Below the pieces are notes generated by a model. That model was given only the letters and a program-made list of their open reading frames with translations, ran no database searches and was not told the origin of the DNA. Of a stretch of DNA of 64,000 bases, positions 46,016-64,000 are shown piece after piece. Origin of the DNA: Hirudinaria manillensis (lineage: Eukaryota > Annelida > Clitellata > Hirudinida > Hirudinidae); assembly GCA_034509925.1 (NCBI GenBank), contig CM067536.1, forward strand, positions 4,024,501 to 4,088,500. The letters are read 5' to 3'. Numbering within the stretch: the stretch's first letter is position 1; the number at the start of each line of letters is the position of its first letter. The position numbers were made by a program, and so were the translations under genes.

Positions 46016-46038
46016 ATCACGTTCGCTGGGAACAGACT
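46016..46038 (+). pseudogene. Truncated tRNA-Val(CAC) at the left edge of the array
   Basis: ATCACGTTCGC joined directly to TGGGAACAGAC: the anticodon loop, variable loop and most of the T arm are deleted, so the array begins inside a tRNA gene with an internal deletion. Confidence 0.75.
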
Positions 46039-46115
46039 TTTATCTGCTCGAGGACGAAAATCGTGATTTTGCAGACGCAAAAAGCTGCCGGACATCCTCT
46101 AACAAAAGACCGCCG

Positions 46116-46188
46116 TGTTTCCGCCCAGGCTCGAACTGGGGACCTTTCGCGTGTTAGGCGAACGTGATAACCACTACACCACGGAAAC
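46116..46188 (-). tRNA. tRNA-Val(AAC) copy 1
   Basis: Complete 73-nt cloverleaf on the minus strand: acceptor GTTTCCG / CGGAAAC, discriminator A, D arm with AGTGGTTATCAC, anticodon stem TTCGC / GCGAA around loop CTAACAC (anticodon AAC, read as IAC after deamination for GUU/GUC/GUA), T arm CCCAG-TTCGAGC-CTGGG. A TTTT terminator lies about 10 nt downstream. The internal A and B boxes serve TFIIIC. Confidence 0.97.
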
Positions 46189-46337
46189 AGACGCTCTCAA
46201 ACGCTTCCATAGGTCCACGCATGACTGCCTCTAGGCTTTTTCGGCGCCAAAAAGCCCATCCCATCGCCGCGCAGCGTCCTCATCGGCGCCAGGCAAAACC
46301 GGCCTGGGTCGGTCGGAAGCGTGAGAAAAATCCGCGA

Positions 46338-46409
46338 CTCCCTAGCGGGGAATCGAACCCCGGCCGCGGCGGTGAGAGCGCCGAATCCTAACCACTAGAC
46401 TACTAGGGA
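46338..46409 (-). tRNA. tRNA-Glu(CTC) copy 1
   Basis: 72-nt cloverleaf on the minus strand: acceptor TCCCTAG / CTAGGGA (7 perfect pairs), discriminator G, D arm AGTCTAGTGGTTAGGA, anticodon loop CTCTCAC (anticodon CTC, reads GAG), T arm with GGTTCGATTCC. TTTTT terminator at 46326-46330 read on the minus strand. About 150 bp upstream of Val-AAC copy 1 on the same strand. Confidence 0.97.
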
Positions 46410-46644
46410 AGTACGGCAGAACGTCCTCTGCTTAGAACGTTTTCCTATCTTCGGGCAGACGAGGACCGATTCTCTGAGCGTCTCATCGAATCTCTTCTAG
46501 ACTAGATTCGATCAGTCGTTCGTTATAGCCTTCGCGCTCAGATTGCTCTACCGGCGAACGGTCGACGAGAGCATCGTGGCAATCAGCACTCCTCGAGAAT
46601 CACGAAGGAGACGGAGATGAGTTCGTTCCCTCGAGAACATCCTT

Positions 46645-46717
46645 GTTTCCGTGGTGTAGTGGCTATCACGTTCGCCTCACACGCGAAAGGTCCCCAGTTC
46701 GAGCCTGGGCGGGAACA
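46645..46717 (+). tRNA. tRNA-Val(CAC) copy 1
   Basis: 73-nt cloverleaf: acceptor GTTTCCG / CGGGAAC (one T-G wobble), discriminator A, D arm AGTGGCTATCAC, anticodon loop CTCACAC (anticodon CAC, reads GUG), T arm CCCAG-TTCGAGC-CTGGG. Followed by TTTT. Differs from Val-AAC by three bases only (D loop, anticodon first base, acceptor). Confidence 0.97.
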
Positions 46718-46798
46718 GACTTTTATCTGCTCGAGGACGAAAATCGTGATTTTGCAGACGCAAAAAGCTGCCGGACATCCTCTAACAAAAGACCGCCG

Positions 46799-46871
46799 TG
46801 TTTCCGCCCAGGCTCGAACTGGGGACCTTTCGCGTGTTAGGCGAACGTGATAACCACTACACCACGGAAAC
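46799..46871 (-). tRNA. tRNA-Val(AAC) copy 2
   Basis: No difference from copy 1 seen; convergent with Val-CAC copy 1. Confidence 0.96.
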
Positions 46872-47020
46872 AGACGCTCTCAAACGCTTCCATAGGTCCA
46901 CGCATGACTGCCTCTAGGCTTTTTCGGCGCCAAAAAGCCCATCCCATCGCCGCGCAGCGTCCTCATCGGCGCCAGGCAAAACCGGCCTGGGTCGGTCGGA
47001 AGCGTGAGAAAAATCCGCGA

Positions 47021-47092
47021 CTCCCTAGCGGGGAATCGAACCCCGGCCGCGGCGGTGAGAGCGCCGAATCCTAACCACTAGACTACTAGGGA
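47021..47092 (-). tRNA. tRNA-Glu(CTC) copy 2
   Basis: No difference from copy 1 seen. Confidence 0.96.
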
Positions 47093-47327
47093 AGTACGGC
47101 AGAACGTCCTCTGCTTAGAACGTTTTCCTATCTTCGGGCAGACGAGGACCGATTCTCTGAGCGTCTCATCGAATCTCTTCTAGACTAGATTCGATCAGTC
47201 GTTCGTTATAGCCTTCGCGCTCAGATTGCTCTACCGGCGAACGGTCGACGAGAGCATCGTGGCAATCAGCACTCCTCGAGAATCACGAAGGAGACGGAGA
47301 TGAGTTCGTTCCCTCGAGAACATCCTT

Positions 47328-47400
47328 GTTTCCGTGGTGTAGTGGCTATCACGTTCGCCTCACACGCGAAAGGTCCCCAGTTCGAGCCTGGGCGGGAACA
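47328..47400 (+). tRNA. tRNA-Val(CAC) copy 2
   Basis: No difference from copy 1 seen. Confidence 0.96.
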
Positions 47401-47481
47401 GACTTTTATCTGCTCGAGGACGAAAATCGTGATTTTGCAGACGCAAAAAGCTGCCGGACATCCTCTAACAAAAGACCGCCG

Positions 47482-47554
47482 TGTTTCCGCCCAGGCTCGA
47501 ACTGGGGACCTTTCGCGTGTTAGGCGAACGTGATAACCACTACACCACGGAAAC
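47482..47554 (-). tRNA. tRNA-Val(AAC) copy 3
   Basis: Matches copy 1. Confidence 0.96.
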
Positions 47555-47703
47555 AGACGCTCTCAAACGCTTCCATAGGTCCACGCATGACTGCCTCTAG
47601 GCTTTTTCGGCGCCAAAAAGCCCATCCCATCGCCGCGCAGCGTCCTCATCGGCGCCAGGCAAAACCGGCCTGGGTCGGTCGGAAGCGTGAGAAAAATCCG
47701 CGA

Positions 47704-47775
47704 CTCCCTAGCGGGGAATCGAACCCCGGCCGCGGCGGTGAGAGCGCCGAATCCTAACCACTAGACTACTAGGGA
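47704..47775 (-). tRNA. tRNA-Glu(CTC) copy 3
   Basis: Matches copy 1. Confidence 0.96.
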
Positions 47776-48010
47776 AGTACGGCAGAACGTCCTCTGCTTA
47801 GAACGTTTTCCTATCTTCGGGCAGACGAGGACCGATTCTCTGAGCGTCTCATCGAATCTCTTCTAGACTAGATTCGATCAGTCGTTCGTTATAGCCTTCG
47901 CGCTCAGATTGCTCTACCGGCGAACGGTCGACGAGAGCATCGTGGCAATCAGCACTCCTCGAGAATCACGAAGGAGACGGAGATGAGTTCGTTCCCTCGA
48001 GAACATCCTT

Positions 48011-48083
48011 GTTTCCGTGGTGTAGTGGCTATCACGTTCGCCTCACACGCGAAAGGTCCCCAGTTCGAGCCTGGGCGGGAACA
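48011..48083 (+). tRNA. tRNA-Val(CAC) copy 3
   Basis: Matches copy 1. Confidence 0.96.
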
Positions 48084-48164
48084 GACTTTTATCTGCTCGA
48101 GGACGAAAATCGTGATTTTGCAGACGCAAAAAGCTGCCGGACATCCTCTAACAAAAGACCGCCG

Positions 48165-48237
48165 TGTTTCCGCCCAGGCTCGAACTGGGGACCTTTCGCG
48201 TGTTAGGCGAACGTGATAACCACTACACCACGGAAAC
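48165..48237 (-). tRNA. tRNA-Val(AAC) copy 4
   Basis: Matches copy 1. Confidence 0.96.
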
Positions 48238-48386
48238 AGACGCTCTCAAACGCTTCCATAGGTCCACGCATGACTGCCTCTAGGCTTTTTCGGCGCCAAA
48301 AAGCCCATCCCATCGCCGCGCAGCGTCCTCATCGGCGCCAGGCAAAACCGGCCTGGGTCGGTCGGAAGCGTGAGAAAAATCCGCGA

Positions 48387-48458
48387 CTCCCTAGCGGGGA
48401 ATCGAACCCCGGCCGCGGCGGTGAGAGCGCCGAATCCTAACCACTAGACTACTAGGGA
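48387..48458 (-). tRNA. tRNA-Glu(CTC) copy 4
   Basis: Matches copy 1. Confidence 0.96.
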
Positions 48459-48693
48459 AGTACGGCAGAACGTCCTCTGCTTAGAACGTTTTCCTATCTT
48501 CGGGCAGACGAGGACCGATTCTCTGAGCGTCTCATCGAATCTCTTCTAGACTAGATTCGATCAGTCGTTCGTTATAGCCTTCGCGCTCAGATTGCTCTAC
48601 CGGCGAACGGTCGACGAGAGCATCGTGGCAATCAGCACTCCTCGAGAATCACGAAGGAGACGGAGATGAGTTCGTTCCCTCGAGAACATCCTT

Positions 48694-48766
48694 GTTTCCG
48701 TGGTGTAGTGGCTATCACGTTCGCCTCACACGCGAAAGGTCCCCAGTTCGAGCCTGGGCGGGAACA
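48694..48766 (+). tRNA. tRNA-Val(CAC) copy 4
   Basis: Matches copy 1. Confidence 0.96.
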
Positions 48767-48847
48767 GACTTTTATCTGCTCGAGGACGAAAATCGTGATT
48801 TTGCAGACGCAAAAAGCTGCCGGACATCCTCTAACAAAAGACCGCCG

Positions 48848-48920
48848 TGTTTCCGCCCAGGCTCGAACTGGGGACCTTTCGCGTGTTAGGCGAACGTGAT
48901 AACCACTACACCACGGAAAC
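48848..48920 (-). tRNA. tRNA-Val(AAC) copy 5
   Basis: Matches copy 1. Confidence 0.96.
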
Positions 48921-49069
48921 AGACGCTCTCAAACGCTTCCATAGGTCCACGCATGACTGCCTCTAGGCTTTTTCGGCGCCAAAAAGCCCATCCCATCGCC
49001 GCGCAGCGTCCTCATCGGCGCCAGGCAAAACCGGCCTGGGTCGGTCGGAAGCGTGAGAAAAATCCGCGA

Positions 49070-49141
49070 CTCCCTAGCGGGGAATCGAACCCCGGCCGCG
49101 GCGGTGAGAGCGCCGAATCCTAACCACTAGACTACTAGGGA
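49070..49141 (-). tRNA. tRNA-Glu(CTC) copy 5
   Basis: Matches copy 1. Confidence 0.96.
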
Positions 49142-49376
49142 AGTACGGCAGAACGTCCTCTGCTTAGAACGTTTTCCTATCTTCGGGCAGACGAGGACCG
49201 ATTCTCTGAGCGTCTCATCGAATCTCTTCTAGACTAGATTCGATCAGTCGTTCGTTATAGCCTTCGCGCTCAGATTGCTCTACCGGCGAACGGTCGACGA
49301 GAGCATCGTGGCAATCAGCACTCCTCGAGAATCACGAAGGAGACGGAGATGAGTTCGTTCCCTCGAGAACATCCTT

Positions 49377-49449
49377 GTTTCCGTGGTGTAGTGGCTATCA
49401 CGTTCGCCTCACACGCGAAAGGTCCCCAGTTCGAGCCTGGGCGGGAACA
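49377..49449 (+). tRNA. tRNA-Val(CAC) copy 5
   Basis: Matches copy 1. Confidence 0.96.
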
Positions 49450-49530
49450 GACTTTTATCTGCTCGAGGACGAAAATCGTGATTTTGCAGACGCAAAAAGC
49501 TGCCGGACATCCTCTAACAAAAGACCGCCG

Positions 49531-49603
49531 TGTTTCCGCCCAGGCTCGAACTGGGGACCTTTCGCGTGTTAGGCGAACGTGATAACCACTACACCACGGA
49601 AAC
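49531..49603 (-). tRNA. tRNA-Val(AAC) copy 6
   Basis: Matches copy 1. Confidence 0.96.
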
Positions 49604-49752
49604 AGACGCTCTCAAACGCTTCCATAGGTCCACGCATGACTGCCTCTAGGCTTTTTCGGCGCCAAAAAGCCCATCCCATCGCCGCGCAGCGTCCTCATCG
49701 GCGCCAGGCAAAACCGGCCTGGGTCGGTCGGAAGCGTGAGAAAAATCCGCGA

Positions 49753-49824
49753 CTCCCTAGCGGGGAATCGAACCCCGGCCGCGGCGGTGAGAGCGCCGAA
49801 TCCTAACCACTAGACTACTAGGGA
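49753..49824 (-). tRNA. tRNA-Glu(CTC) copy 6
   Basis: Gene matches copy 1; the spacer just upstream of it (about 49830) has a small rearrangement and 1-bp loss. Confidence 0.96.
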
Positions 49825-50058
49825 AGTACGGGCAACGTCCTCTGCTTAGAACGTTTTCCTATCTTCGGGCAGACGAGGACCGATTCTCTGAGCGTCTCAT
49901 CGAATCTCTTCTAGACTAGATTCGATCAGTCGTTCGTTATAGCCTTCGCGCTCAGATTGCTCTACCGGCGAACGGTCGACGAGAGCATCGTGGCAATCAG
50001 CACTCCTCGAGAATCACGAAGGAGACGGAGATGAGTTCGTTCCCTCGAGAACATCCTT

Positions 50059-50131
50059 GTTTCCGTGGTGTAGTGGCTATCACGTTCGCCTCACACGCGA
50101 AAGGTCCCCAGTTCGAGCCTGGGCGGGAACA
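50059..50131 (+). tRNA. tRNA-Val(CAC) copy 6
   Basis: Matches copy 1. Confidence 0.96.
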
Positions 50132-50212
50132 GACTTTTATCTGCTCGAGGACGAAAATCGTGATTTTGCAGACGCAAAAAGCTGCCGGACATCCTCTAAC
50201 AAAAGACCGCCG

Positions 50213-50285
50213 TGTTTCCGCCCAGGCTCGAACTGGGGACCTTTCGCGTGTTAGGCGAACGTGATAACCACTACACCACGGAAAC
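50213..50285 (-). tRNA. tRNA-Val(AAC) copy 7
   Basis: Matches copy 1. Confidence 0.96.
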
Positions 50286-50434
50286 AGACGCTCTCAAACG
50301 CTTCCATAGGTCCACGCATGACTGCCTCTAGGCTTTTTCGGCGCCAAAAAGCCCATCCCATCGCCGCGCAGCGTCCTCATCGGCGCCAGGCAAAACCGGC
50401 CTGGGTCGGTCGGAAGCGTGAGAAAAATCCGCGA

Positions 50435-50505
50435 CTCCCTAGCGGGGAATCGAACCCGGCCGCGGCGGTGAGAGCGCCGAATCCTAACCACTAGACTACT
50501 AGGGA
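50435..50505 (-). tRNA. tRNA-Glu(CTC) copy 7, T-stem variant
   Basis: One base shorter than copy 1: a G is missing from the GGGG run on the 5' side of the T stem (minus strand), which weakens that stem. Possibly non-functional or a sequencing indel. Confidence 0.8.
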
Positions 50506-50740
50506 AGTACGGCAGAACGTCCTCTGCTTAGAACGTTTTCCTATCTTCGGGCAGACGAGGACCGATTCTCTGAGCGTCTCATCGAATCTCTTCTAGACTA
50601 GATTCGATCAGTCGTTCGTTATAGCCTTCGCGCTCAGATTGCTCTACCGGCGAACGGTCGACGAGAGCATCGTGGCAATCAGCACTCCTCGAGAATCACG
50701 AAGGAGACGGAGATGAGTTCGTTCCCTCGAGAACATCCTC

Positions 50741-50813
50741 GTTTCCGTGGTGTAGTGGCTATCACGTTCGCCTCACACGCGAAAGGTCCCCAGTTCGAGC
50801 CTGGGCGGGAACA
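50741..50813 (+). tRNA. tRNA-Val(CAC) copy 7
   Basis: Gene matches copy 1; the base just before it is C rather than T. Confidence 0.96.
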
Positions 50814-50894
50814 GACTTTTATCTGCTCGAGGACGAAAATCGTGATTTTGCAGACGCAAAAAGCTGCCGGACATCCTCTAACAAAAGACCGCCG

Positions 50895-50967
50895 TTTTTC
50901 CGCCCCGGCTCGAACTGGGGACCTTTCGCGTGTTAGGCGAACGTGATAACCACTACACCACGGAAAC
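50895..50967 (-). tRNA. tRNA-Val(AAC) copy 8, mutated acceptor and T stem
   Basis: Two substitutions relative to copy 1: the 3' base of the acceptor stem no longer pairs with G1, and one T-stem pair is broken. Probably a weakened or dead gene. Confidence 0.75.
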
Positions 50968-51114
50968 AGACGCTCTCAAACGCTTCCATAGGTCCACGCA
51001 TGACTGCCTCTAGGCTTTTTCGGCGCCAAAAAGCCCATCCCATCGCCGCGCAGCGTCTCATCGGCGCCAGGCAAAACCGCCTGGGTCGGTCGGAAGCGTG
51101 AGAAAAATCCGCGA

Positions 51115-51186
51115 CTCCCTAGCGGGGAATCGAACCCCGGCCGCGGCGGTGAGAGCGCCGAATCCTAACCACTAGACTACTAGGGA
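51115..51186 (-). tRNA. tRNA-Glu(CTC) copy 8
   Basis: Gene matches copy 1; two single-base deletions sit in the flanking spacer near 51055 and 51080. Confidence 0.96.
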
Positions 51187-51422
51187 AGTACGGCAGAACG
51201 TCCTCTGCTTAGAACGTTTTCCTATCTTCGGGCAGACGAGGACCGATTCTCTGAGCGTCTCATCGAATCTCTTCTAGACTAGATTCGATCAGTCGTTCGT
51301 TATAGCCTTCGCGCTCAGATTGCTCTACCGGCGAACGGTCGACGAGAGCATCGTGGCAATCAGCACTCCTCGAGAATCACGAAGGAGACGGAGATGAGTT
51401 CGTTCCCTCGAGAACATCCTCT

Positions 51423-51495
51423 GTTTCCGTGGTGTAGTGGCTATCACGTTCGCCTCACACGCGAAAGGTCCCCAGTTCGAGCCTGGGCGGGAACA
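51423..51495 (+). tRNA. tRNA-Val(CAC) copy 8
   Basis: Gene matches copy 1; one extra base immediately upstream. Confidence 0.96.
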
Positions 51496-51576
51496 GACTT
51501 TTATCTGCTCGAGGACGAAAATCGTGATTTTGCAGACGCAAAAAGCTGCCGGACATCCTCTAACAAAAGACCGCCG

Positions 51577-51649
51577 TGTTTCCGCCCAGGCTCGAACTGG
51601 GGACCTTTCGCGTGTTAGGCGAACGTGATAACCACTACACCACGGAAAC
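51577..51649 (-). tRNA. tRNA-Val(AAC) copy 9
   Basis: Matches copy 1. Confidence 0.96.
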
Positions 51650-51798
51650 AGACGCTCTCAAACGCTTCCATAGGTCCACGCATGACTGCCTCTAGGCTTT
51701 TTCGGCGCCAAAAAGCCCATCCCATCGCCGCGCAGCGTCCTCATCGGCGCCAGGCAAAACCGGCCTGGGTCGGTCGGAAGCGTGAGAAAAATCCGCGA

Positions 51799-51862
51799 CT
51801 CCCTAGCGGGGAATCGAACCCCGGCCGCGGCGGTGAGAGCGCCGAATAACCACTACTAGGGA
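51799..51862 (-). pseudogene. tRNA-Glu(CTC) copy 9, deleted D arm
   Basis: 64 nt instead of 72: two small deletions remove 8 bases from the D-arm/A-box region and its flank (reads GCCGAATAACCACTACTAGG on +). The cloverleaf and A box are disrupted. Confidence 0.8.
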
Positions 51863-52098
51863 AGTACGGCAGAAACGTCCTCTGCTTAGAACGTTTTCCT
51901 ATCTTCGGGCAGACGAGGACCGATTCTCTGAGCGTCTCATCGAATCTCTTCTAGACTAGATTCGATCAGTCGTTCGTTATAGCCTTCGCGCTCAGATTGC
52001 TCTACCGGCGAACGGTCGACGAGAGCATCGTGGCAATCAGCACTCCTCGAGAATCACGAAGGAGACGGAGATGAGTTCGTTCCCTCGAGAACATCCTT

Positions 52099-52171
52099 GT
52101 TTCCGTGGTGTAGTGGCTATCACGTTCGCCTCACACGCGAAAGGTCCCCAGTTCGAGCCTGGGCGGGAACA
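52099..52171 (+). tRNA. tRNA-Val(CAC) copy 9
   Basis: Matches copy 1. Confidence 0.96.
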
Positions 52172-52252
52172 GACTTTTATCTGCTCGAGGACGAAAATCG
52201 TGATTTTGCAGACGCAAAAAGCTGCCGGACATCCTCTAACAAAAGACCGCCG

Positions 52253-52325
52253 TGTTTCCGCCCAGGCTCGAACTGGGGACCTTTCGCGTGTTAGGCGAAC
52301 GTGATAACCACTACACCACGGAAAC
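52253..52325 (-). tRNA. tRNA-Val(AAC) copy 10
   Basis: Matches copy 1. Confidence 0.96.
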
Positions 52326-52475
52326 AGACGCTCTCAAACGCTTCCATAGGTCCACGCATGACTGCCTCTAGGCTTTTTCGGCGCCAAAAAGCCCATCCCA
52401 TCGCCGCGCAGCGTCCTCATCGGGCGCCAGGCAAAACCGGCCTGGGTCGGTCGGAAGCGTGAGAAAAATCCGCGA

Positions 52476-52547
52476 CTCCCTAGCGGGGAATCGAACCCCG
52501 GCCGCGGCGGTGAGAGCGCCGAATCCTAACCACTAGACTACTAGGGA
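52476..52547 (-). tRNA. tRNA-Glu(CTC) copy 10
   Basis: Matches copy 1; one extra G in the spacer near 52423. The spacer upstream of this gene (52575-52625) lacks about 8 bp including half of the ATCGAATCT palindrome. Confidence 0.95.
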
Positions 52548-52773
52548 AGTACGGCAGAACGTCCTCTGCTTAGAACGTTCCCTATCTTCGGGCAGACGAG
52601 GACCGATTCTCTGAGCGTCTCGCTTCTAGACTAGATTCGATCAGTCGTTCGTTATAGCCTTCGCGCTCAGATTGCTCTACCGGCGAACGGTCGACGAGAG
52701 CATCGTGGCAATCAGCACTCCTCGAGAATCACGAAGGAGACGGAGATGAGTTCGTTCCCTCGAGAACATCCTC

Positions 52774-52846
52774 GTTTCCGTGGTGTAGTGGCTATCACGT
52801 TCGCCTCACACGCGAAAGGTCCCCAGTTCGAGCCTGGGCGGGAACA
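52774..52846 (+). tRNA. tRNA-Val(CAC) copy 10
   Basis: Gene matches copy 1; preceded by C like copy 7. Confidence 0.96.
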
Positions 52847-52927
52847 GACTTTTATCTGCTCGAGGACGAAAATCGTGATTTTGCAGACGCAAAAAGCTGC
52901 CGGACATCCTCTAACAAAAGACCGCCG

Positions 52928-53000
52928 TGTTTCCGCCCAGGCTCGAACTGGGGACCTTTCGCGTGTTAGGCGAACGTGATAACCACTACACCACGGAAAC
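52928..53000 (-). tRNA. tRNA-Val(AAC) copy 11
   Basis: Matches copy 1. Confidence 0.96.
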
Positions 53001-53149
53001 AGACGCTCTCAAACGCTTCCATAGGTCCACGCATGACTGTCTCTAGGCTTTTTCGGCGCCAAAAAGCCCATCCCATCGCCGCGCAGCGTCCTCATCGGCG
53101 CCAGGCAAAACCGGCCTGGGTCGGTCGGAAGCGTGAGAAAAATCCGCGA

Positions 53150-53221
53150 CTCCCTAGCGGGGAATCGAACCCCGGCCGCGGCGGTGAGAGCGCCGAATCC
53201 TAACCACTAGACTACTAGGGA
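53150..53221 (-). tRNA. tRNA-Glu(CTC) copy 11
   Basis: Matches copy 1; one substitution in the spacer at about 53040. Confidence 0.96.
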
Positions 53222-53456
53222 AGTACGGCAGAACGTCCTCTGCTTAGAACGTTTTCCTATCTTCGGGCAGACGAGGACCGATTCTCTGAGCGTCTCATCG
53301 AATCTCTTCTAGACTAGATTCGATCAGTCGTTCGTTATAGCCTTCGCGCTCAGATTGCTCTACCGGCGAACGGTCGACGAGAGCATCGTGGCAATCAGCA
53401 CTCCTCGAGAATCACGAAGGAGACGGAGATGAGTTCGTTCCCTCGAGAACATCCTT

Positions 53457-53529
53457 GTTTCCGTGGTGTAGTGGCTATCACGTTCGCCTCACACGCGAAA
53501 GGTCCCCAGTTCGAGCCTGGGCGGGAACA
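53457..53529 (+). tRNA. tRNA-Val(CAC) copy 11
   Basis: Matches copy 1. Confidence 0.96.
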
Positions 53530-53610
53530 GACTTTTATCTGCTCGAGGACGAAAATCGTGATTTTGCAGACGCAAAAAGCTGCCGGACATCCTCTAACAA
53601 AAGACCCCAC

Positions 53611-53683
53611 AGTGTCCGCCCAGGCTCGAACTGGGGACCTTTCGCGTGTTAGGCGAACGTGATAACCACTACACCACGGAAAC
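53611..53683 (-). tRNA. tRNA-Val(AAC) copy 12, damaged 3' acceptor
   Basis: The 3' end reads GTGTCCGCCC on + instead of GTGTTTCCGCCC, with changed flank, so two acceptor-stem bases are lost. Probably non-functional. Confidence 0.75.
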
Positions 53684-53832
53684 AGACGCTCTCAAACGCT
53701 TCCATAGGTCCACGCATGACTGCCTCTAGGCTTTTTCGGCGCCAAAAAGCCCATCCCATCGCCGCGCAGCGTCCTCATCGGCGCCAGGCAAAACCGGCCT
53801 GGGTCGGTCGGAAGCGTGAGAAAAATCCGCGA

Positions 53833-53904
53833 CTCCCTAGCGGGGAATCGAACCCCGGCCGCGGCGGTGAGAGCGCCGAATCCTAACCACTAGACTACTA
53901 GGGA
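53833..53904 (-). tRNA. tRNA-Glu(CTC) copy 12
   Basis: Matches copy 1. Confidence 0.96.
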
Positions 53905-54139
53905 AGTACGGCAGAACGTCCTCTGCTTAGAACGTTTTCCTATCTTCGGGCAGACGAGGACCGATTCTCTGAGCGTCTCATCGAATCTCTTCTAGACTAG
54001 ATTCGATCAGTCGTTCGTTATAGCCTTCGCGCTCAGATTGCTCTACCGGCGAACGGTCGACGAGAGCATCGTGGCAATCAGCACTCCTCGAGAATCACGA
54101 AGGAGACGGAGATGAGTTCGTTCCCTCGAGAACATCCTT

Positions 54140-54212
54140 GTTTCCGTGGTGTAGTGGCTATCACGTTCGCCTCACACGCGAAAGGTCCCCAGTTCGAGCC
54201 TGGGCGGGAACA
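54140..54212 (+). tRNA. tRNA-Val(CAC) copy 12
   Basis: Gene matches copy 1; the downstream spacer near 54233-54248 is altered and contains T8. Confidence 0.96.
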
Positions 54213-54293
54213 GACTTTTATCTGCTCGAGGACTAAAATCTTTTTTTTGCAGACGCAAAAAGCTGCCGGACATCCTCTAACAAAAGACCGCCG

Positions 54294-55953: not shown

Positions 55954-56188
55954 AGTACGGCAGAACGTCCTCTGCTTAGAACGTTTTCCTATCTTCGGGC
56001 AGACGAGGACCGATTCTCTGAGCGTCTCATCGAATCTCTTCTAGACTAGATTCGATCAGTCGTTCGTTATAGCCTTCGCGCTCAGATTGCTCTACCGGCG
56101 AACGGTCGACGAGAGCATCGTGGCAATCAGCACTCCTCGAGAATCACGAAGGAGACGGAGATGAGTTCGTTCCCTCGAGAACATCCTT

Positions 56189-56261
56189 GTTTCCGTGGTG
56201 TAGTGGCTATCACGTTCGCCTCACACGCGAAAGGTCCCCAGTTCGAGCCTGGGCGGGAACA
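56189..56261 (+). tRNA. tRNA-Val(CAC) copy 15
   Basis: Matches copy 1. Confidence 0.96.
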
Positions 56262-56342
56262 GACTTTTATCTGCTCGAGGACGAAAATCGTGATTTTGCA
56301 GACGCAAAAAGCTGCCGGACATCCTCTAACAAAAGACCGCCG

Positions 56343-56415
56343 TGTTTCCGCCCAGGCTCGAACTGGGGACCTTTCGCGTGTTAGGCGAACGTGATAACCA
56401 CTACACCACGGAAAC
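56343..56415 (-). tRNA. tRNA-Val(AAC) copy 16
   Basis: Matches copy 1. Confidence 0.96.
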
Positions 56416-56562
56416 AGACGCTCTCAAACGCTTCCATAGGTCCACGCATGACTGCCTCTAGGCTTTTTCGGCGCCAAAAGCCATCCCATCGCCGCGCAGC
56501 GTCCTCATCGGCGCCAGGCAAAACCGGCCTGGGTCGGTCGGAAGCGTGAGAAAAATCCGCGA

Positions 56563-56634
56563 CTCCCTAGCGGGGAATCGAACCCCGGCCGCGGCGGTGA
56601 GAGCGCCGAATCCTAACCACTAGACTACTAGGGA
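56563..56634 (-). tRNA. tRNA-Glu(CTC) copy 16
   Basis: Gene matches copy 1; 2 bp are missing from the GGCTTTTT / AAAAAGCC spacer hairpin near 56478. Confidence 0.96.
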
Positions 56635-56869
56635 AGTACGGCAGAACGTCCTCTGCTTAGAACGTTTTCCTATCTTCGGGCAGACGAGGACCGATTCTCT
56701 GAGCGTCTCATCGAATCTCTTCTAGACTAGATTCGATCAGTCGTTCGTTATAGCCTTCGCGCTCAGATTGCTCTACCGGCGAACGGTCGACGAGAGCATC
56801 GTGGCAATCAGCACTCCTCGAGAATCACGAAGGAGACGGAGATGAGTTCGTTCCCTCGAGAACATCCTT

Positions 56870-56942
56870 GTTTCCGTGGTGTAGTGGCTATCACGTTCGC
56901 CTCACACGCGAAAGGTCCCCAGTTCGAGCCTGGGCGGGAACA
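56870..56942 (+). tRNA. tRNA-Val(CAC) copy 16
   Basis: Matches copy 1. Confidence 0.96.
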
Positions 56943-57023
56943 GACTTTTATCTGCTCGAGGACGAAAATCGTGATTTTGCAGACGCAAAAAGCTGCCGGA
57001 CATCCTCTAACAAAAGACCGCCG

Positions 57024-57096
57024 TGTTTCCGCCCAGGCTCGAACTGGGGACCTTTCGCGTGTTAGGCGAACGTGATAACCACTACACCACGGAAAC
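57024..57096 (-). tRNA. tRNA-Val(AAC) copy 17
   Basis: Matches copy 1. Confidence 0.96.
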
Positions 57097-57245
57097 AGAC
57101 GCTCTCAAACGCTTCCATAGGTCCACGCATGACTGCCTCTAGGCTTTTTCGGCGCCAAAAAGCCCATCCCATCGCCGCGCAGCGTCCTCATCGGCGCCAG
57201 GCAAAACCGGCCTGGGTCGGTCGGAAGCGTGAGAAAAATCCGCGA

Positions 57246-57317
57246 CTCCCTAGCGGGGAATCGAACCCCGGCCGCGGCGGTGAGAGCGCCGAATCCTAAC
57301 CACTAGACTACTAGGGA
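57246..57317 (-). tRNA. tRNA-Glu(CTC) copy 17
   Basis: Matches copy 1. Confidence 0.96.
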
Positions 57318-57552
57318 AGTACGGCAGAACGTCCTCTGCTTAGAACGTTTTCCTATCTTCGGGCAGACGAGGACCGATTCTCTGAGCGTCTCATCGAATC
57401 TCTTCTAGACTAGATTCGATCAGTCGTTCGTTATAGCCTTCGCGCTCAGATTGCTCTACCGGCGAACGGTCGACGAGAGCATCGTGGCAATCAGCACTCC
57501 TCGAGAATCACGAAGGAGACGGAGATGAGTTCGTTCCCTCGAGAACATCCTT

Positions 57553-57625
57553 GTTTCCGTGGTGTAGTGGCTATCACGTTCGCCTCACACGCGAAAGGTC
57601 CCCAGTTCGAGCCTGGGCGGGAACA
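57553..57625 (+). tRNA. tRNA-Val(CAC) copy 17
   Basis: Matches copy 1. Confidence 0.96.
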
Positions 57626-57706
57626 GACTTTTATCTGCTCGAGGACGAAAATCGTGATTTTGCAGACGCAAAAAGCTGCCGGACATCCTCTAACAAAAGA
57701 CCGCCG

Positions 57707-57779
57707 TGTTTCCGCCCAGGCTCGAACTGGGGACCTTTCGCGTGTTAGGCGAACGTGATAACCACTACACCACGGAAAC
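57707..57779 (-). tRNA. tRNA-Val(AAC) copy 18
   Basis: Matches copy 1. Confidence 0.96.
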
Positions 57780-57928
57780 AGACGCTCTCAAACGCTTCCA
57801 TAGGTCCACGCATGACTGCCTCTAGGCTTTTTCGGCGCCAAAAAGCCCATCCCATCGCCGCGCAGCGTCCTCATCGGCGCCAGGCAAAACCGGCCTGGGT
57901 CGGTCGGAAGCGTGAGAAAAATCCGCGA

Positions 57929-58000
57929 CTCCCTAGCGGGGAATCGAACCCCGGCCGCGGCGGTGAGAGCGCCGAATCCTAACCACTAGACTACTAGGGA
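57929..58000 (-). tRNA. tRNA-Glu(CTC) copy 18
   Basis: Matches copy 1. Confidence 0.96.
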
Positions 58001-58235
58001 AGTACGGCAGAACGTCCTCTGCTTAGAACGTTTTCCTATCTTCGGGCAGACGAGGACCGATTCTCTGAGCGTCTCATCGAATCTCTTCTAGACTAGATTC
58101 GATCAGTCGTTCGTTATAGCCTTCGCGCTCAGATTGCTCTACCGGCGAACGGTCGACGAGAGCATCGTGGCAATCAGCACTCCTCGAGAATCACGAAGGA
58201 GACGGAGATGAGTTCGTTCCCTCGAGAACATCCTT

Positions 58236-58308
58236 GTTTCCGTGGTGTAGTGGCTATCACGTTCGCCTCACACGCGAAAGGTCCCCAGTTCGAGCCTGGG
58301 CGGGAACA
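58236..58308 (+). tRNA. tRNA-Val(CAC) copy 18
   Basis: Matches copy 1. Confidence 0.96.
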
Positions 58309-58389
58309 GACTTTTATCTGCTCGAGGACGAAAATCGTGATTTTGCAGACGCAAAAAGCTGCCGGACATCCTCTAACAAAAGACCGCCG

Positions 58390-58462
58390 TGTTTCCGCCC
58401 AGGCTCGAACTGGGGACCTTTCGCGTGTTAGGCGAACGTGATAACCACTACACCACGGAAAC
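58390..58462 (-). tRNA. tRNA-Val(AAC) copy 19
   Basis: Matches copy 1. Confidence 0.96.
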
Positions 58463-58611
58463 AGACGCTCTCAAACGCTTCCATAGGTCCACGCATGACT
58501 GCCTCTAGGCTTTTTCGGCGCCAAAAAGCCCATCCCATCGCCGCGCAGCGTCCTCATCGGCGCCAGGCAAAACCGGCCTGGGTCGGTCGGAAGCGTGAGA
58601 AAAATCCGCGA

Positions 58612-58683
58612 CTCCCTAGCGGGGAATCGAACCCCGGCCGCGGCGGTGAGAGCGCCGAATCCTAACCACTAGACTACTAGGGA
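58612..58683 (-). tRNA. tRNA-Glu(CTC) copy 19
   Basis: Matches copy 1. Confidence 0.96.
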
Positions 58684-58918
58684 AGTACGGCAGAACGTCC
58701 TCTGCTTAGAACGTTTTCCTATCTTCGGGCAGACGAGGACCGATTCTCTGAGCGTCTCATCGAATCTCTTCTAGACTAGATTCGATCAGTCGTTCGTTAT
58801 AGCCTTCGCGCTCAGATTGCTCTACCGGCGAACGGTCGACGAGAGCATCGTGGCAATCAGCACTCCTCGAGAATCACGAAGGAGACGGAGATGAGTTCGT
58901 TCCCTCGAGAACATCCTT

Positions 58919-58991
58919 GTTTCCGTGGTGTAGTGGCTATCACGTTCGCCTCACACGCGAAAGGTCCCCAGTTCGAGCCTGGGCGGGAACA
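58919..58991 (+). tRNA. tRNA-Val(CAC) copy 19
   Basis: Matches copy 1. Confidence 0.96.
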
Positions 58992-59072
58992 GACTTTTAT
59001 CTGCTCGAGGACGAAAATCGTGATTTTGCAGACGCAAAAAGCTGCCGGACATCCTCTAACAAAAGACCGCCG

Positions 59073-59145
59073 TGTTTCCGCCCAGGCTCGAACTGGGGAC
59101 CTTTCGCGTGTTAGGCGAACGTGATAACCACTACACCACGGAAAC
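59073..59145 (-). tRNA. tRNA-Val(AAC) copy 20
   Basis: Matches copy 1. Confidence 0.96.
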
Positions 59146-59294
59146 AGACGCTCTCAAACGCTTCCATAGGTCCACGCATGACTGCCTCTAGGCTTTTTCG
59201 GCGCCAAAAAGCCCATCCCATCGCCGCGCAGCGTCCTCATCGGCGCCAGGCAAAACCGGCCTGGGTCGGTCGGAAGCGTGAGAAAAATCCGCGA

Positions 59295-59366
59295 CTCCCT
59301 AGCGGGGAATCGAACCCCGGCCGCGGCGGTGAGAGCGCCGAATCCTAACCACTAGACTACTAGGGA
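59295..59366 (-). tRNA. tRNA-Glu(CTC) copy 20
   Basis: Matches copy 1. Confidence 0.96.
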
Positions 59367-59601
59367 AGTACGGCAGAACGTCCTCTGCTTAGAACGTTTT
59401 CCTATCTTCGGGCAGACGAGGACCGATTCTCTGAGCGTCTCATCGAATCTCTTCTAGACTAGATTCGATCAGTCGTTCGTTATAGCCTTCGCGCTCAGAT
59501 TGCTCTACCGGCGAACGGTCGACGAGAGCATCGTGGCAATCAGCACTCCTCGAGAATCACGAAGGAGACGGAGATGAGTTCGTTCCCTCGAGAACATCCT
59601 T

Positions 59602-59674
59602 GTTTCCGTGGTGTAGTGGCTATCACGTTCGCCTCACACGCGAAAGGTCCCCAGTTCGAGCCTGGGCGGGAACA
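59602..59674 (+). tRNA. tRNA-Val(CAC) copy 20
   Basis: Matches copy 1. Confidence 0.96.
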
Positions 59675-59755
59675 GACTTTTATCTGCTCGAGGACGAAAA
59701 TCGTGATTTTGCAGACGCAAAAAGCTGCCGGACATCCTCTAACAAAAGACCGCCG

Positions 59756-59828
59756 TGTTTCCGCCCAGGCTCGAACTGGGGACCTTTCGCGTGTTAGGCG
59801 AACGTGATAACCACTACACCACGGAAAC
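59756..59828 (-). tRNA. tRNA-Val(AAC) copy 21
   Basis: Matches copy 1. Confidence 0.96.
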
Positions 59829-59977
59829 AGACGCTCTCAAACGCTTCCATAGGTCCACGCATGACTGCCTCTAGGCTTTTTCGGCGCCAAAAAGCCCATC
59901 CCATCGCCGCGCAGCGTCCTCATCGGCGCCAGGCAAAACCGGCCTGGGTCGGTCGGAAGCGTGAGAAAAATCCGCGA

Positions 59978-60049
59978 CTCCCTAGCGGGGAATCGAACCC
60001 CGGCCGCGGCGGTGAGAGCGCCGAATCCTAACCACTAGACTACTAGGGA
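59978..60049 (-). tRNA. tRNA-Glu(CTC) copy 21
   Basis: Matches copy 1. Confidence 0.96.
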
Positions 60050-60284
60050 AGTACGGCAGAACGTCCTCTGCTTAGAACGTTTTCCTATCTTCGGGCAGAC
60101 GAGGACCGATTCTCTGAGCGTCTCATCGAATCTCTTCTAGACTAGATTCGATCAGTCGTTCGTTATAGCCTTCGCGCTCAGATTGCTCTACCGGCGAACG
60201 GTCGACGAGAGCATCGTGGCAATCAGCACTCCTCGAGAATCACGAAGGAGACGGAGATGAGTTCGTTCCCTCGAGAACATCCTC

Positions 60285-60357
60285 GTTTCCGTGGTGTAGT
60301 GGCTATCACGTTCGCCTCACACGCGAAAGGTCCCCAGTTCGAGCCTGGGCGGGAACA
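60285..60357 (+). tRNA. tRNA-Val(CAC) copy 21
   Basis: Gene matches copy 1; preceded by C like copies 7 and 10. Confidence 0.96.
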
Positions 60358-60438
60358 GACTTTTATCTGCTCGAGGACGAAAATCGTGATTTTGCAGACG
60401 CAAAAAGCTGCCGGACATCCTCTAACAAAAGACCGCCG

Positions 60439-60511
60439 TGTTTCCGCCCAGGCTCGAACTGGGGACCTTTCGCGTGTTAGGCGAACGTGATAACCACTAC
60501 ACCACGGAAAC
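60439..60511 (-). tRNA. tRNA-Val(AAC) copy 22
   Basis: Matches copy 1. Confidence 0.96.
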
Positions 60512-60660
60512 AGACGCTCTCAAACGCTTCCATAGGTCCACGCATGACTGCCTCTAGGCTTTTTCGGCGCCAAAAAGCCCATCCCATCGCCGCGCAGCGT
60601 CCTCATCGGCGCCAGGCAAAACCGGCCTGGGTCGGTCGGAAGCGTGAGAAAAATCCGCGA

Positions 60661-60732
60661 CTCCCTAGCGGGGAATCGAACCCCGGCCGCGGCGGTGAGA
60701 GCGCCGAATCCTAACCACTAGACTACTAGGGA
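60661..60732 (-). tRNA. tRNA-Glu(CTC) copy 22
   Basis: Matches copy 1. Confidence 0.96.
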
Positions 60733-60967
60733 AGTACGGCAGAACGTCCTCTGCTTAGAACGTTTTCCTATCTTCGGGCAGACGAGGACCGATTCTCTGA
60801 GCGTCTCATCGAATCTCTTCTAGACTAGATTCGATCAGTCGTTCGTTATAGCCTTCGCGCTCAGATTGCTCTACCGGCGAACGGTCGACGAGAGCATCGT
60901 GGCAATCAGCACTCCTCGAGAATCACGAAGGAGACGGAGATGAGTTCGTTCCCTCGAGAACATCCTT

Positions 60968-61040
60968 GTTTCCGTGGTGTAGTGGCTATCACGTTCGCCT
61001 CACACGCGAAAGGTCCCCAGTTCGAGCCTGGGCGGGAACA
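60968..61040 (+). tRNA. tRNA-Val(CAC) copy 22
   Basis: Matches copy 1. Confidence 0.96.
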
Positions 61041-61121
61041 GACTTTTATCTGCTCGAGGACGAAAATCGTGATTTTGCAGACGCAAAAAGCTGCCGGACA
61101 TCCTCTAACAAAAGACCGCCG

Positions 61122-61194
61122 TGTTTCCGCCCAGGCTCGAACTGGGGACCTTTCGCGTGTTAGGCGAACGTGATAACCACTACACCACGGAAAC
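61122..61194 (-). tRNA. tRNA-Val(AAC) copy 23
   Basis: Matches copy 1. Confidence 0.96.
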
Positions 61195-61343
61195 AGACGC
61201 TCTCAAACGCTTCCATAGGTCCACGCATGACTGCCTCTAGGCTTTTTCGGCGCCAAAAAGCCCATCCCATCGCCGCGCAGCGTCCTCATCGGCGCCAGGC
61301 AAAACCGGCCTGGGTCGGTCGGAAGCGTGAGAAAAATCCGCGA

Positions 61344-61415
61344 CTCCCTAGCGGGGAATCGAACCCCGGCCGCGGCGGTGAGAGCGCCGAATCCTAACCA
61401 CTAGACTACTAGGGA
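61344..61415 (-). tRNA. tRNA-Glu(CTC) copy 23
   Basis: Matches copy 1. Confidence 0.96.
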
Positions 61416-61650
61416 AGTACGGCAGAACGTCCTCTGCTTAGAACGTTTTCCTATCTTCGGGCAGACGAGGACCGATTCTCTGAGCGTCTCATCGAATCTC
61501 TTCTAGACTAGATTCGATCAGTCGTTCGTTATAGCCTTCGCGCTCAGATTGCTCTACCGGCGAACGGTCGACGAGAGCATCGTGGCAATCAGCACTCCTC
61601 GAGAATCACGAAGGAGACGGAGATGAGTTCGTTCCCTCGAGAACATCCTC

Positions 61651-61723
61651 GTTTCCGTGGTGTAGTGGCTATCACGTTCGCCTCACACGCGAAAGGTCCC
61701 CAGTTCGAGCCTGGGCGGGAACA
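61651..61723 (+). tRNA. tRNA-Val(CAC) copy 23
   Basis: Gene matches copy 1; preceded by C. Confidence 0.96.
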
Positions 61724-61804
61724 GACTTTTATCTGCTCGAGGACGAAAATCGTGATTTTGCAGACGCAAAAAGCTGCCGGACATCCTCTAACAAAAGACC
61801 GCCG

Positions 61805-61877
61805 TGTTTCCGCCCAGGCTCGAACTGGGGACCTTTCGCGTGTTAGGCGAACGTGATAACCACTACACCACGGAAAC
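61805..61877 (-). tRNA. tRNA-Val(AAC) copy 24
   Basis: Matches copy 1. Confidence 0.96.
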
Positions 61878-62026
61878 AGACGCTCTCAAACGCTTCCATA
61901 GGTCCACGCATGACTGCCTCTAGGCTTTTTCGGCGCCAAAAAGCCCATCCCATCGCCGCGCAGCGTCCTCATCGGCGCCAGGCAAAACCGGCCTGGGTCG
62001 GTCGGAAGCGTGAGAAAAATCCGCGA

Positions 62027-62098
62027 CTCCCTAGCGGGGAATCGAACCCCGGCCGCGGCGGTGAGAGCGCCGAATCCTAACCACTAGACTACTAGGGA
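62027..62098 (-). tRNA. tRNA-Glu(CTC) copy 24
   Basis: Matches copy 1. Confidence 0.96.
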
Positions 62099-62333
62099 AG
62101 TACGGCAGAACGTCCTCTGCTTAGAACGTTTTCCTATCTTCGGGCAGACGAGGACCGATTCTCTGAGCGTCTCATCGAATCTCTTCTAGACTAGATTCGA
62201 TCAGTCGTTCGTTATAGCCTTCGCGCTCAGATTGCTCTACCGGCGAACGGTCGACGAGAGCATCGTGGCAATCAGCACTCCTCGAGAATCACGAAGGAGA
62301 CGGAGATGAGTTCGTTCCCTCGAGAACATCCTT

Positions 62334-62406
62334 GTTTCCGTGGTGTAGTGGCTATCACGTTCGCCTCACACGCGAAAGGTCCCCAGTTCGAGCCTGGGCG
62401 GGAACA
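62334..62406 (+). tRNA. tRNA-Val(CAC) copy 24
   Basis: Matches copy 1. Confidence 0.96.
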
Positions 62407-62487
62407 GACTTTTATCTGCTCGAGGACGAAAATCGTGATTTTGCAGACGCAAAAAGCTGCCGGACATCCTCTAACAAAAGACCGCCG

Positions 62488-62560
62488 TGTTTCCGCCCAG
62501 GCTCGAACTGGGGACCTTTCGCGTGTTAGGCGAACGTGATAACCACTACACCACGGAAAC
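62488..62560 (-). tRNA. tRNA-Val(AAC) copy 25
   Basis: Matches copy 1. Confidence 0.96.
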
Positions 62561-62709
62561 AGACGCTCTCAAACGCTTCCATAGGTCCACGCATGACTGC
62601 CTCTAGGCTTTTTCGGCGCCAAAAAGCCCATCCCATCGCCGCGCAGCGTCCTCATCGGCGCCAGGCAAAACCGGCCTGGGTCGGTCGGAAGCGTGAGAAA
62701 AATCCGCGA

Positions 62710-62781
62710 CTCCCTAGCGGGGAATCGAACCCCGGCCGCGGCGGTGAGAGCGCCGAATCCTAACCACTAGACTACTAGGGA
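62710..62781 (-). tRNA. tRNA-Glu(CTC) copy 25
   Basis: Matches copy 1. Confidence 0.96.
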
Positions 62782-63016
62782 AGTACGGCAGAACGTCCTC
62801 TGCTTAGAACGTTTTCCTATCTTCGGGCAGACGAGGACCGATTCTCTGAGCGTCTCATCGAATCTCTTCTAGACTAGATTCGATCAGTCGTTCGTTATAG
62901 CCTTCGCGCTCAGATTGCTCTACCGGCGAACGGTCGACGAGAGCATCGTGGCAATCAGCACTCCTCGAGAATCACGAAGGAGACGGAGATGAGTTCGTTC
63001 CCTCGAGAACATCCTT

Positions 63017-63089
63017 GTTTCCGTGGTGTAGTGGCTATCACGTTCGCCTCACACGCGAAAGGTCCCCAGTTCGAGCCTGGGCGGGAACA
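63017..63089 (+). tRNA. tRNA-Val(CAC) copy 25
   Basis: Matches copy 1. Confidence 0.96.
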
Positions 63090-63170
63090 GACTTTTATCT
63101 GCTCGAGGACGAAAATCGTGATTTTGCAGACGCAAAAAGCTGCCGGACATCCTCTAACAAAAGACCGCCG

Positions 63171-63243
63171 TGTTTCCGCCCAGGCTCGAACTGGGGACCT
63201 TTCGCGTGTTAGGCGAACGTGATAACCACTACACCACGGAAAC
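63171..63243 (-). tRNA. tRNA-Val(AAC) copy 26
   Basis: Matches copy 1. Confidence 0.96.
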
Positions 63244-63392
63244 AGACGCTCTCAAACGCTTCCATAGGTCCACGCATGACTGCCTCTAGGCTTTTTCGGC
63301 GCCAAAAAGCCCATCCCATCGCCGCGCAGCGTCCTCATCGGCGCCAGGCAAAACCGGCCTGGGTCGGTCGGAAGCGTGAGAAAAATCCGCGA

Positions 63393-63464
63393 CTCCCTAG
63401 CGGGGAATCGAACCCCGGCCGCGGCGGTGAGAGCGCCGAATCCTAACCACTAGACTACTAGGGA
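63393..63464 (-). tRNA. tRNA-Glu(CTC) copy 26
   Basis: Matches copy 1. Confidence 0.96.
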
Positions 63465-63699
63465 AGTACGGCAGAACGTCCTCTGCTTAGAACGTTTTCC
63501 TATCTTCGGGCAGACGAGGACCGATTCTCTGAGCGTCTCATCGAATCTCTTCTAGACTAGATTCGATCAGTCGTTCGTTATAGCCTTCGCGCTCAGATTG
63601 CTCTACCGGCGAACGGTCGACGAGAGCATCGTGGCAATCAGCACTCCTCGAGAATCACGAAGGAGACGGAGATGAGTTCGTTCCCTCGAGAACATCCTC

Positions 63700-63772
63700 G
63701 TTTCCGTGGTGTAGTGGCTATCACGTTCGCCTCACACGCGAAAGGTCCCCAGTTCGAGCCTGGGCGGGAACA
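63700..63772 (+). tRNA. tRNA-Val(CAC) copy 26
   Basis: Gene matches copy 1; preceded by C. Confidence 0.96.
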
Positions 63773-63853
63773 GACTTTTATCTGCTCGAGGACGAAAATC
63801 GTGATTTTGCAGACGCAAAAAGCTGCCGGACATCCTCTAACAAAAGACCGCCG

Positions 63854-63926
63854 TGTTTCCGCCCAGGCTCGAACTGGGGACCTTTCGCGTGTTAGGCGAA
63901 CGTGATAACCACTACACCACGGAAAC
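63854..63926 (-). tRNA. tRNA-Val(AAC) copy 27
   Basis: Matches copy 1. The Glu-CTC partner of this unit would start just past the window end. Confidence 0.96.
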
Positions 63927-64000
63927 AGACGCTCTCAAACGCTTCCATAGGTCCACGCATGACTGCCTCTAGGCTTTTTCGGCGCCAAAAAGCCCATCCC

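What the first reader, a model, noticed from the sequence alone, without database searches (positions are those of the whole stretch)
46016..64000. Large homogeneous Val-Val-Glu tRNA gene array
More than 26 near-identical 683-bp units hold 79 tRNA genes in 18 kb and the array is still open at the window end. Only two amino acids and three anticodons are represented (Val-CAC, Val-AAC, Glu-CTC). Spacers are as conserved as the genes, so the unit as a whole is being homogenised, as in rDNA or 5S arrays. Such an array could serve heavy demand for GUG, GUN and GAG codons, act as a chromatin boundary, or simply be an unequal-exchange amplicon.
Basis: partly seen in the sequence, partly recalled or inferred. 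Interest (0 to 1): 0.8.

Follow-up and report, generated by a model that had tools for sequence, protein, structure and literature searches.

The report
Leech tRNA genes in tandem arrays
A leech chromosome carries about 74 nearly identical copies of a block of three tRNA genes that look like the genome's main source of two valine tRNAs, and at least three other such arrays lie elsewhere in the genome, so this looks like a general way of housing tRNA genes rather than a special demand for two amino acids.

Summary
The array is real in the assembly and longer than the window: about 50.3 kb, 74 units of 683 bp, each with Val-CAC (+), Val-AAC (-) and Glu-CTC (-); ARAGORN genes. Of 73 full units 53 are identical and 11 more differ at one base. 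Assembly statistics point to the leech Hirudinaria manillensis. All 147 whole-assembly matches to the Val-AAC/CAC core are accounted for by this array; Glu-CTC has two solitary copies elsewhere. So the array is probably the working Val tRNA locus, not a silent amplicon. It is not unique: three more arrays turned up (Gly-TCC, 293 bp; Thr-AGT/Leu-CAG, 585 bp; Glu-TTC/Phe-GAA, 400 bp), which argues against a special Val/Glu demand. All four have GC-rich spacers (54-57%) in a 36% GC context, consistent with homogenisation by recombination, perhaps GC-biased (inferred). Tandem tRNA arrays are known in Entamoeba, Hydractinia, Nematostella and Arabidopsis; I saw no annelid report in the searches made. 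The gene ending 57 bp before the array is GTF3C5, a subunit of TFIIIC, the factor that binds tRNA promoters: possibly chance, possibly feedback. True copy number and expression are untested.

The parts
46016..64000 (.). tandem array of 683-bp units, as far as the window reaches; continues to extended coordinate 96278 (C11:4120778)
46798..47480 (.). one representative 683-bp unit (start of a Val-AAC gene to the next)
46644..46718 (+). tRNA-Val-CAC (first full copy; one per unit); T-run terminator 3 nt downstream of the call
46798..46871 (-). tRNA-Val-AAC (one per unit), tail to tail with Val-CAC, 70 of 73 positions alike; T run 8 nt downstream
47019..47093 (-). tRNA-Glu-CTC (one per unit); T run 6 nt downstream
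46016..46040 (+). left edge: stub of a Val-CAC gene with its middle missing, joined to AT-rich flank
49530..54292 (.). seven consecutive irregular units with small indels and substitutions; low-quality patch or diverged segment
51797..51870 (-). Glu-CTC copy broken by 3- and 5-nt deletions, not called by ARAGORN
43455..45958 (+). neighbouring protein gene, GTF3C5 (TFIIIC subunit, Tau95 family), exons read stretch by stretch; stop codon ends 57 bp before the array; not part of the repeat

Best explanation
This is a concertedly evolving tandem tRNA gene array in a leech, very likely Hirudinaria manillensis. It is one of several arrays, each given over to one or two amino acids' isoacceptors or a small mixed set. 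Each 683-bp unit carries three separate Pol III genes with internal promoters and their own T-run terminators. The array is the main, perhaps only, source of tRNA-Val-AAC and -CAC and the main source of Glu-CTC. Unequal exchange and gene conversion among units keep genes and spacers alike and let copy number drift. Shown: anatomy, homogeneity, decayed edges, no other Val-AAC/CAC core match in the assembly, three further arrays, GC-rich spacers. Inferred: transcription, unequal exchange, GC-biased conversion.
For: Intact genes at 59-62 bits, each with a T run 3-8 nt downstream. 53 of 73 full units identical, 11 more differ at one base, 9 carry other changes. Decayed units at both edges. Whole-assembly Val matches 73 + 74, the same numbers as in the array. 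Glu-CTC: 71 in the array, 2 solitary elsewhere. Three other arrays. B-box motif 1969 against 88 in the reversed control. Spacer GC 54-57% in four arrays against 36% in flanks.
Against: No expression data. Copy number rests on an assembly whose mean read length, 18.73 kb, does not span the array. Seven irregular units in a row may be a poor patch. Two solitary Glu-CTC genes could supply that tRNA. A Val gene with a diverged core would have been missed, and no Val-TAC was found by three patterns, which hints that the patterns may miss diverged genes. Many B boxes lie scattered outside arrays, so not all tRNA genes are in arrays. The GC link rests on five loci.
Confidence: 0.8

Rival explanations
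1. Silent redundant amplicon: the array grew by unequal exchange and is mostly off, as the Arabidopsis Ser-Tyr-Tyr cluster is in most tissues, with dispersed genes supplying the tRNA.
For: Precedent: a methylated, mostly silent tandem cluster with three tRNA genes per unit (PMC12308677, passages). Two solitary Glu-CTC genes exist.
Against: All 147 Val-AAC/CAC core matches of the assembly belong to the array, so silence would leave no such valine tRNA found here. Nearly all genes are intact with terminators. CpG is not depleted in the unit (observed/expected 1.30).
Confidence: 0.1
2. Special translational demand: the array was selected to supply unusual need for Val and Glu codons, as with silk-gland tRNAs.
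For: 147 Val genes and 71 intact Glu genes is a large number.
Against: Gly-TCC (at least 88), Thr-AGT (at least 63) and Glu-TTC/Phe-GAA (at least 80) arrays are of like size; listings were capped, so these are lower bounds. Codon usage was not computed.
Confidence: 0.06
3. Assembly expansion: a few real copies were multiplied by the assembler.
For: HiFi reads of mean 18.73 kb do not span 50 kb; one run of 17 consensus units is indistinguishable; seven irregular units in a row suggest a weak patch.
Against: Eleven one-base variants are scattered among consensus units; that run of 17 is about 11.6 kb, within the mean read length; both edges are decayed; other arrays with other units are in the same assembly. 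None of this measures depth.
Confidence: 0.05
4. Chromatin boundary: the array is kept mainly as an insulator or boundary element.
For: tRNA repeats at human 1q23.3 bind CTCF and were proposed as a boundary (PMC4041453, abstract).
Against: No motif, chromatin or contact data were examined here; nothing in the anatomy requires it.
Confidence: 0.04

Closest known systems
Tandem tRNA and other ncRNA arrays of Hydractinia, and tRNA arrays of Nematostella (PMC11067881, passages)
   Same: Animal genome; evenly spaced, nearly identical units with conserved spacers; tens of copies; several tRNA types, each in arrays
   Different: Annelid instead of cnidarian; in Hydractinia arrays are reported for tRNAs of all 20 amino acids, here four arrays were identified and the full set was not surveyed
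tRNA gene arrays of Entamoeba (PMC2652664, passages)
   Same: Units with one to several tRNA genes; uniform copies within a genome; unclear function
   Different: No short tandem repeats were seen between genes in this unit; solitary tRNA genes exist; telomeres are ordinary TTAGGG type and the array is internal
Arabidopsis Ser-Tyr-Tyr cluster (PMC12308677, passages)
   Same: Three tRNA genes per unit, two of one amino acid; tandem expansion
   Different: That cluster is redundant and mostly silent; here no other Val-AAC/CAC core match was found in the assembly
Human 1q23.3 tRNA repeat (PMC4041453, abstract)
   Same: GC-rich tandem units with tRNA genes; variable copy number is expected
   Different: 7.3-kb units with under 6% tRNA sequence and a CTCF site; here 683-bp units, about a third tRNA; no boundary evidence

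Membership tests
Tandem tRNA gene array (Entamoeba/Hydractinia kind) | Many head-to-tail copies of a unit with intact tRNA genes | tested here: met
   74 units, 220 called genes
Tandem tRNA gene array (Entamoeba/Hydractinia kind) | Spacers as uniform as the genes | tested here: met
   Whole-unit mean identity 99.8%; 53 of 73 units identical
Tandem tRNA gene array (Entamoeba/Hydractinia kind) | Several tRNA types housed this way across the genome | tested here: met
   Three further arrays with five other tRNA types; total share of tRNA genes in arrays not measured
Tandem tRNA gene array (Entamoeba/Hydractinia kind) | Nearly all tRNA genes in arrays (Entamoeba) | tested here: inconclusive
   Solitary Glu-CTC genes and scattered B boxes exist; lists capped at 100 places
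Silenced redundant cluster (Arabidopsis Ser-Tyr-Tyr kind) | Dispersed functional copies exist, so the cluster is dispensable | tested here: not met
   No Val-AAC/CAC core match outside the array; for Glu-CTC two solitary copies do exist
Silenced redundant cluster (Arabidopsis Ser-Tyr-Tyr kind) | DNA methylation and lack of transcription | not testable with these tools
   No methylation or RNA data
Boundary repeat (human 1q23.3 kind) | Insulator protein binding and boundary activity | not testable with these tools
   No chromatin data; no motif search made

The most novel reading that the evidence does not exclude
The array beside GTF3C5 is a homeostat. A TFIIIC subunit gene ends 57 bp before a large block of TFIIIC-binding tRNA genes, so Pol III occupancy or transcription there could damp GTF3C5 output (3' end formation, antisense interference or local chromatin) and tie the supply of the factor to its load. 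A yeast precedent is autoregulation of a promoter by TFIIIC (title of Kleinschmidt et al. 2011 seen in the reference list of PMC4228148, which places the ETC6 site at the TFC6 promoter; passages). Chance is the null: with 18,106 genes and some 26 Pol III machinery genes (recalled), one array has roughly a 0.3% chance of such a neighbour on either side, and this was noticed after the fact.
Probability: 0.07. Interest if true: 0.8.

Novelty: new member of a known kind. Interest (0 to 1): 0.5.

Why it matters
Tandem housing of tRNA genes was described in 2024 as unusual outside Entamoeba, with Hydractinia and Nematostella as animal cases and one mammalian example (PMC11067881). A leech with at least four arrays, one holding every Val-AAC/CAC core match found, adds a bilaterian phylum and a compact genome in which the effect of array copy number on tRNA supply, the speed of concerted evolution and GC-biased conversion can be measured. 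It also warns that tRNA gene counts from fragmented leech assemblies may be too low.

Tried and rejected
Rejected: a tRNA-like satellite or pseudogene array, because the genes are intact and carry terminators. Rejected: the idea that the Val genes are poor tRNAs because Rfam's first scan missed them. Rejected: uniqueness of the Val/Glu array.

Led nowhere: 18S rRNA identification (not completed). COX1: not answered, 25 answered. Val-TAC: no 0-mismatch match with three consensus patterns; this does not prove absence. A DNA search with the unit returned only two solitary Glu loci, since that search skips very common words. Pfam on four long window ORFs found nothing. Searches failed on my own term or frame errors; one search failed on a file name. 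A first count for the Val inverted pair (19 of 73) was an off-by-one error; the aligned value is 70 of 73. The 5S locus GC counted N as non-GC; one search replaces it. Literature on GC-biased conversion with tRNA arrays: one unrelated paper. The Val/Glu and Thr/Leu units share no 14-mer and one 12-mer. ORFs right of the array and left of the Thr/Leu array were listed, not identified.
Full report
What is there. The window is C11:4024501-4088500 of an assembly of 148,429,096 bases in 23 contigs. ARAGORN tRNA genes in the window, all in 46115-63926. Fetching the next 200 kb of the contig closed the array, with no N in the stretch: 74 units, about 50.3 kb, 220 called genes (74 Val-AAC, 73 Val-CAC, 73 Glu-CTC). 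One more Glu copy, in the unit that starts at 51576, is broken by small deletions and is not called. No other tRNA is called in the 264 kb.

The unit. It is 683 bp, with Val-AAC and Glu-CTC on the minus strand and Val-CAC on the plus strand. Val-CAC and Val-AAC stand tail to tail, 79 bp apart, and agree at 70 of 73 positions; they differ at the anticodon's first base and two other sites. Rfam scores are 61.9 (Val-AAC), 59.7 (Glu) and 59.0 (Val-CAC) bits. The first run of four or more T lies 8, 6 and 3 nt downstream of the three calls; 16% (plus strand) and 23% (minus strand) of 30-nt windows in the unit hold such a run. These are features of working Pol III genes; transcription was not tested.

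Homogeneity and edges. Of 73 full units, 53 are identical, 11 differ only by one base just before Val-CAC, and 9 carry other changes. Seven of those nine are consecutive (49530-54292) and hold small indels; this may be a consensus-quality patch or an older segment. Mean pairwise identity is 99.8%, minimum 96.8%. Both edges are decayed: a Val-CAC stub on the left, and on the right a Glu gene cut at its 5' end followed by a diverged piece of spacer that ends at extended coordinate 96278. Unequal exchange is the usual cause of such a picture; here it is inferred.

Which organism. The start of C11 carries TTAGGG-type telomere repeats. Contig C23 is 15,581 bp and begins with cox1, followed by tRNA-Asn, an ORF I read as cox2, tRNA-Asp, tRNA-Gly, tRNA-Tyr and an ORF I read as cox3 (cox2 and cox3 recognised by eye, atp8 not scored). 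The published HiFi assembly of the leech Hirudinaria manillensis has 22 scaffolds and a mitochondrial genome of 15,581 bp, with a longest scaffold of 14.76 Mb (PMC10671345, passages); here C1 is 14,755,599 bp. The totals differ slightly (148.59 Mb of scaffolds there, 148.43 Mb here). I take the identification as very likely.

Is the array the only source of these tRNAs? A 72-nt Val pattern with up to 3 mismatches finds 73 forward and 74 reverse matches in the whole assembly. A looser pattern on the conserved core, with free stem positions and a TAC anticodon, up to 3 mismatches, again finds 73 and 74. The same patterns run on the array's own sequence also give 73 and 74, so the array accounts for all 147, although the tool lists only the first 100 places. 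The Glu-CTC pattern finds 73 in the assembly: 71 in the array, one exact solitary copy on C1 and one with 3 mismatches elsewhere on C11. No Val-TAC was found. A valine tRNA gene with a diverged core would escape. With that reservation, an animal needs these tRNAs, so at least part of the array should be active.

It is one of several arrays. The 63 scored Rfam hits of the assembly form one array at C1:5.586 Mb with 585-bp spacing; a stretch of it shows Thr-AGT and Leu-CAG in each unit. B-box searches, whose lists stop at 100 places, show at least 88 copies at about 293-bp spacing from C1:3.362 Mb and at least 80 at about 400-bp spacing from C2:14.066 Mb. Short stretches of each identify Gly-TCC, and Glu-TTC with Phe-GAA. 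The Gly array has irregular spacing in its middle. The B-box motif occurs 1969 times against 88 for the reversed control. Scattered B boxes occur too, so not every tRNA gene need be in an array. A special demand for valine and glutamate is thus unnecessary, although codon usage was not computed. For another leech, Dinobdella ferox, 1308 tRNAs were predicted (PMC10494388, passages); for a draft of Hirudo medicinalis, 429 genes and 116 pseudogenes (PMC7303139, passages). Those passages do not mention tRNA arrays.

GC content. Spacers are 54.0, 56.9, 54.3 and 53.7% GC in the four arrays, against 36% in 49 kb of flank and 32-37% in the 300 bp on each side of the two solitary Glu genes. The 5S rRNA cluster on C6 (47 scored copies, 39-120 bits) is far less uniform; eight of its spacers are 44-47% GC. 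A link between homogenisation and GC fits GC-biased gene conversion, but it is a correlation over five loci, and open chromatin or another cause is possible.

Neighbour. Three stretches between 43455 and 45387 match human GTF3C5 among solved structures (E 3.4e-04, 1.4e-16 and 2.3e-08). One of them matches Pfam Tau95 at E 2.7e-21, and a fourth stretch matches it below the curated cut-off, E 0.0056; four other pieces gave no relevant Pfam match. An acidic reading frame in line with them ends at 45958, 57 bp before the array. GTF3C5 is a subunit of TFIIIC, which recognises the A and B boxes of tRNA genes (established knowledge; TFIIIC's role also in the abstract of PMC3799434, listing). Of the eight flanks of four arrays only this one was named, and the remark is post hoc. 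It is the most novel reading, at 7%.

Known kinds. Tandem tRNA arrays are known in Entamoeba (PMC2652664, passages), Hydractinia and Nematostella (PMC11067881, passages), Arabidopsis (PMC12308677, passages) and at human 1q23.3 (PMC4041453, abstract); large tRNA clusters are also reported in fishes and Nematostella (PMC2888827, passages). A Xenopus tRNA repeat is recalled only. In the listings of searches (30 of 76 papers shown; 15 of 36; 10 of 404; 2 of 2; 4 of 4; 15 of 3,123) I saw no report of tandem nuclear tRNA arrays in an annelid; subscription papers and supplements were not searched. I call it a new member of a known kind.

Noticed in passing
window 43455-45958: The protein gene just left of the array is GTF3C5, a TFIIIC subunit; the array holds the genes that TFIIIC binds.
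   Followed up: partly
G000:C9:3026446-3027786 (L026): A nuclear copy of the mitochondrial cox1 region scores the same 408.4 bits with the same 9 TGA as the mitochondrial contig: a very young insertion, or an assembly join.
   Followed up: no
G000:C6:6120088-6139823: 5S rRNA cluster of about 200-bp units whose copies range from 39 to 120 bits, much less uniform than the tRNA arrays.
   Followed up: partly
window 14893-20204: A 147-bp tandem repeat lies in long open frames and encodes repeats rich in Ser, Arg and Gln; no Pfam match for the one frame tested.
   Followed up: no
L006 about 6860-7530: A long simple repeat reading as Ser-Leu-Thr-His over and over lies about 4.6 kb beyond the right end of the array.
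   Followed up: no
G000:C1:3379487-3393658: The Gly-TCC array has an irregular middle in which B boxes are missing or spaced at 300-330 bp instead of 293.
   Followed up: no
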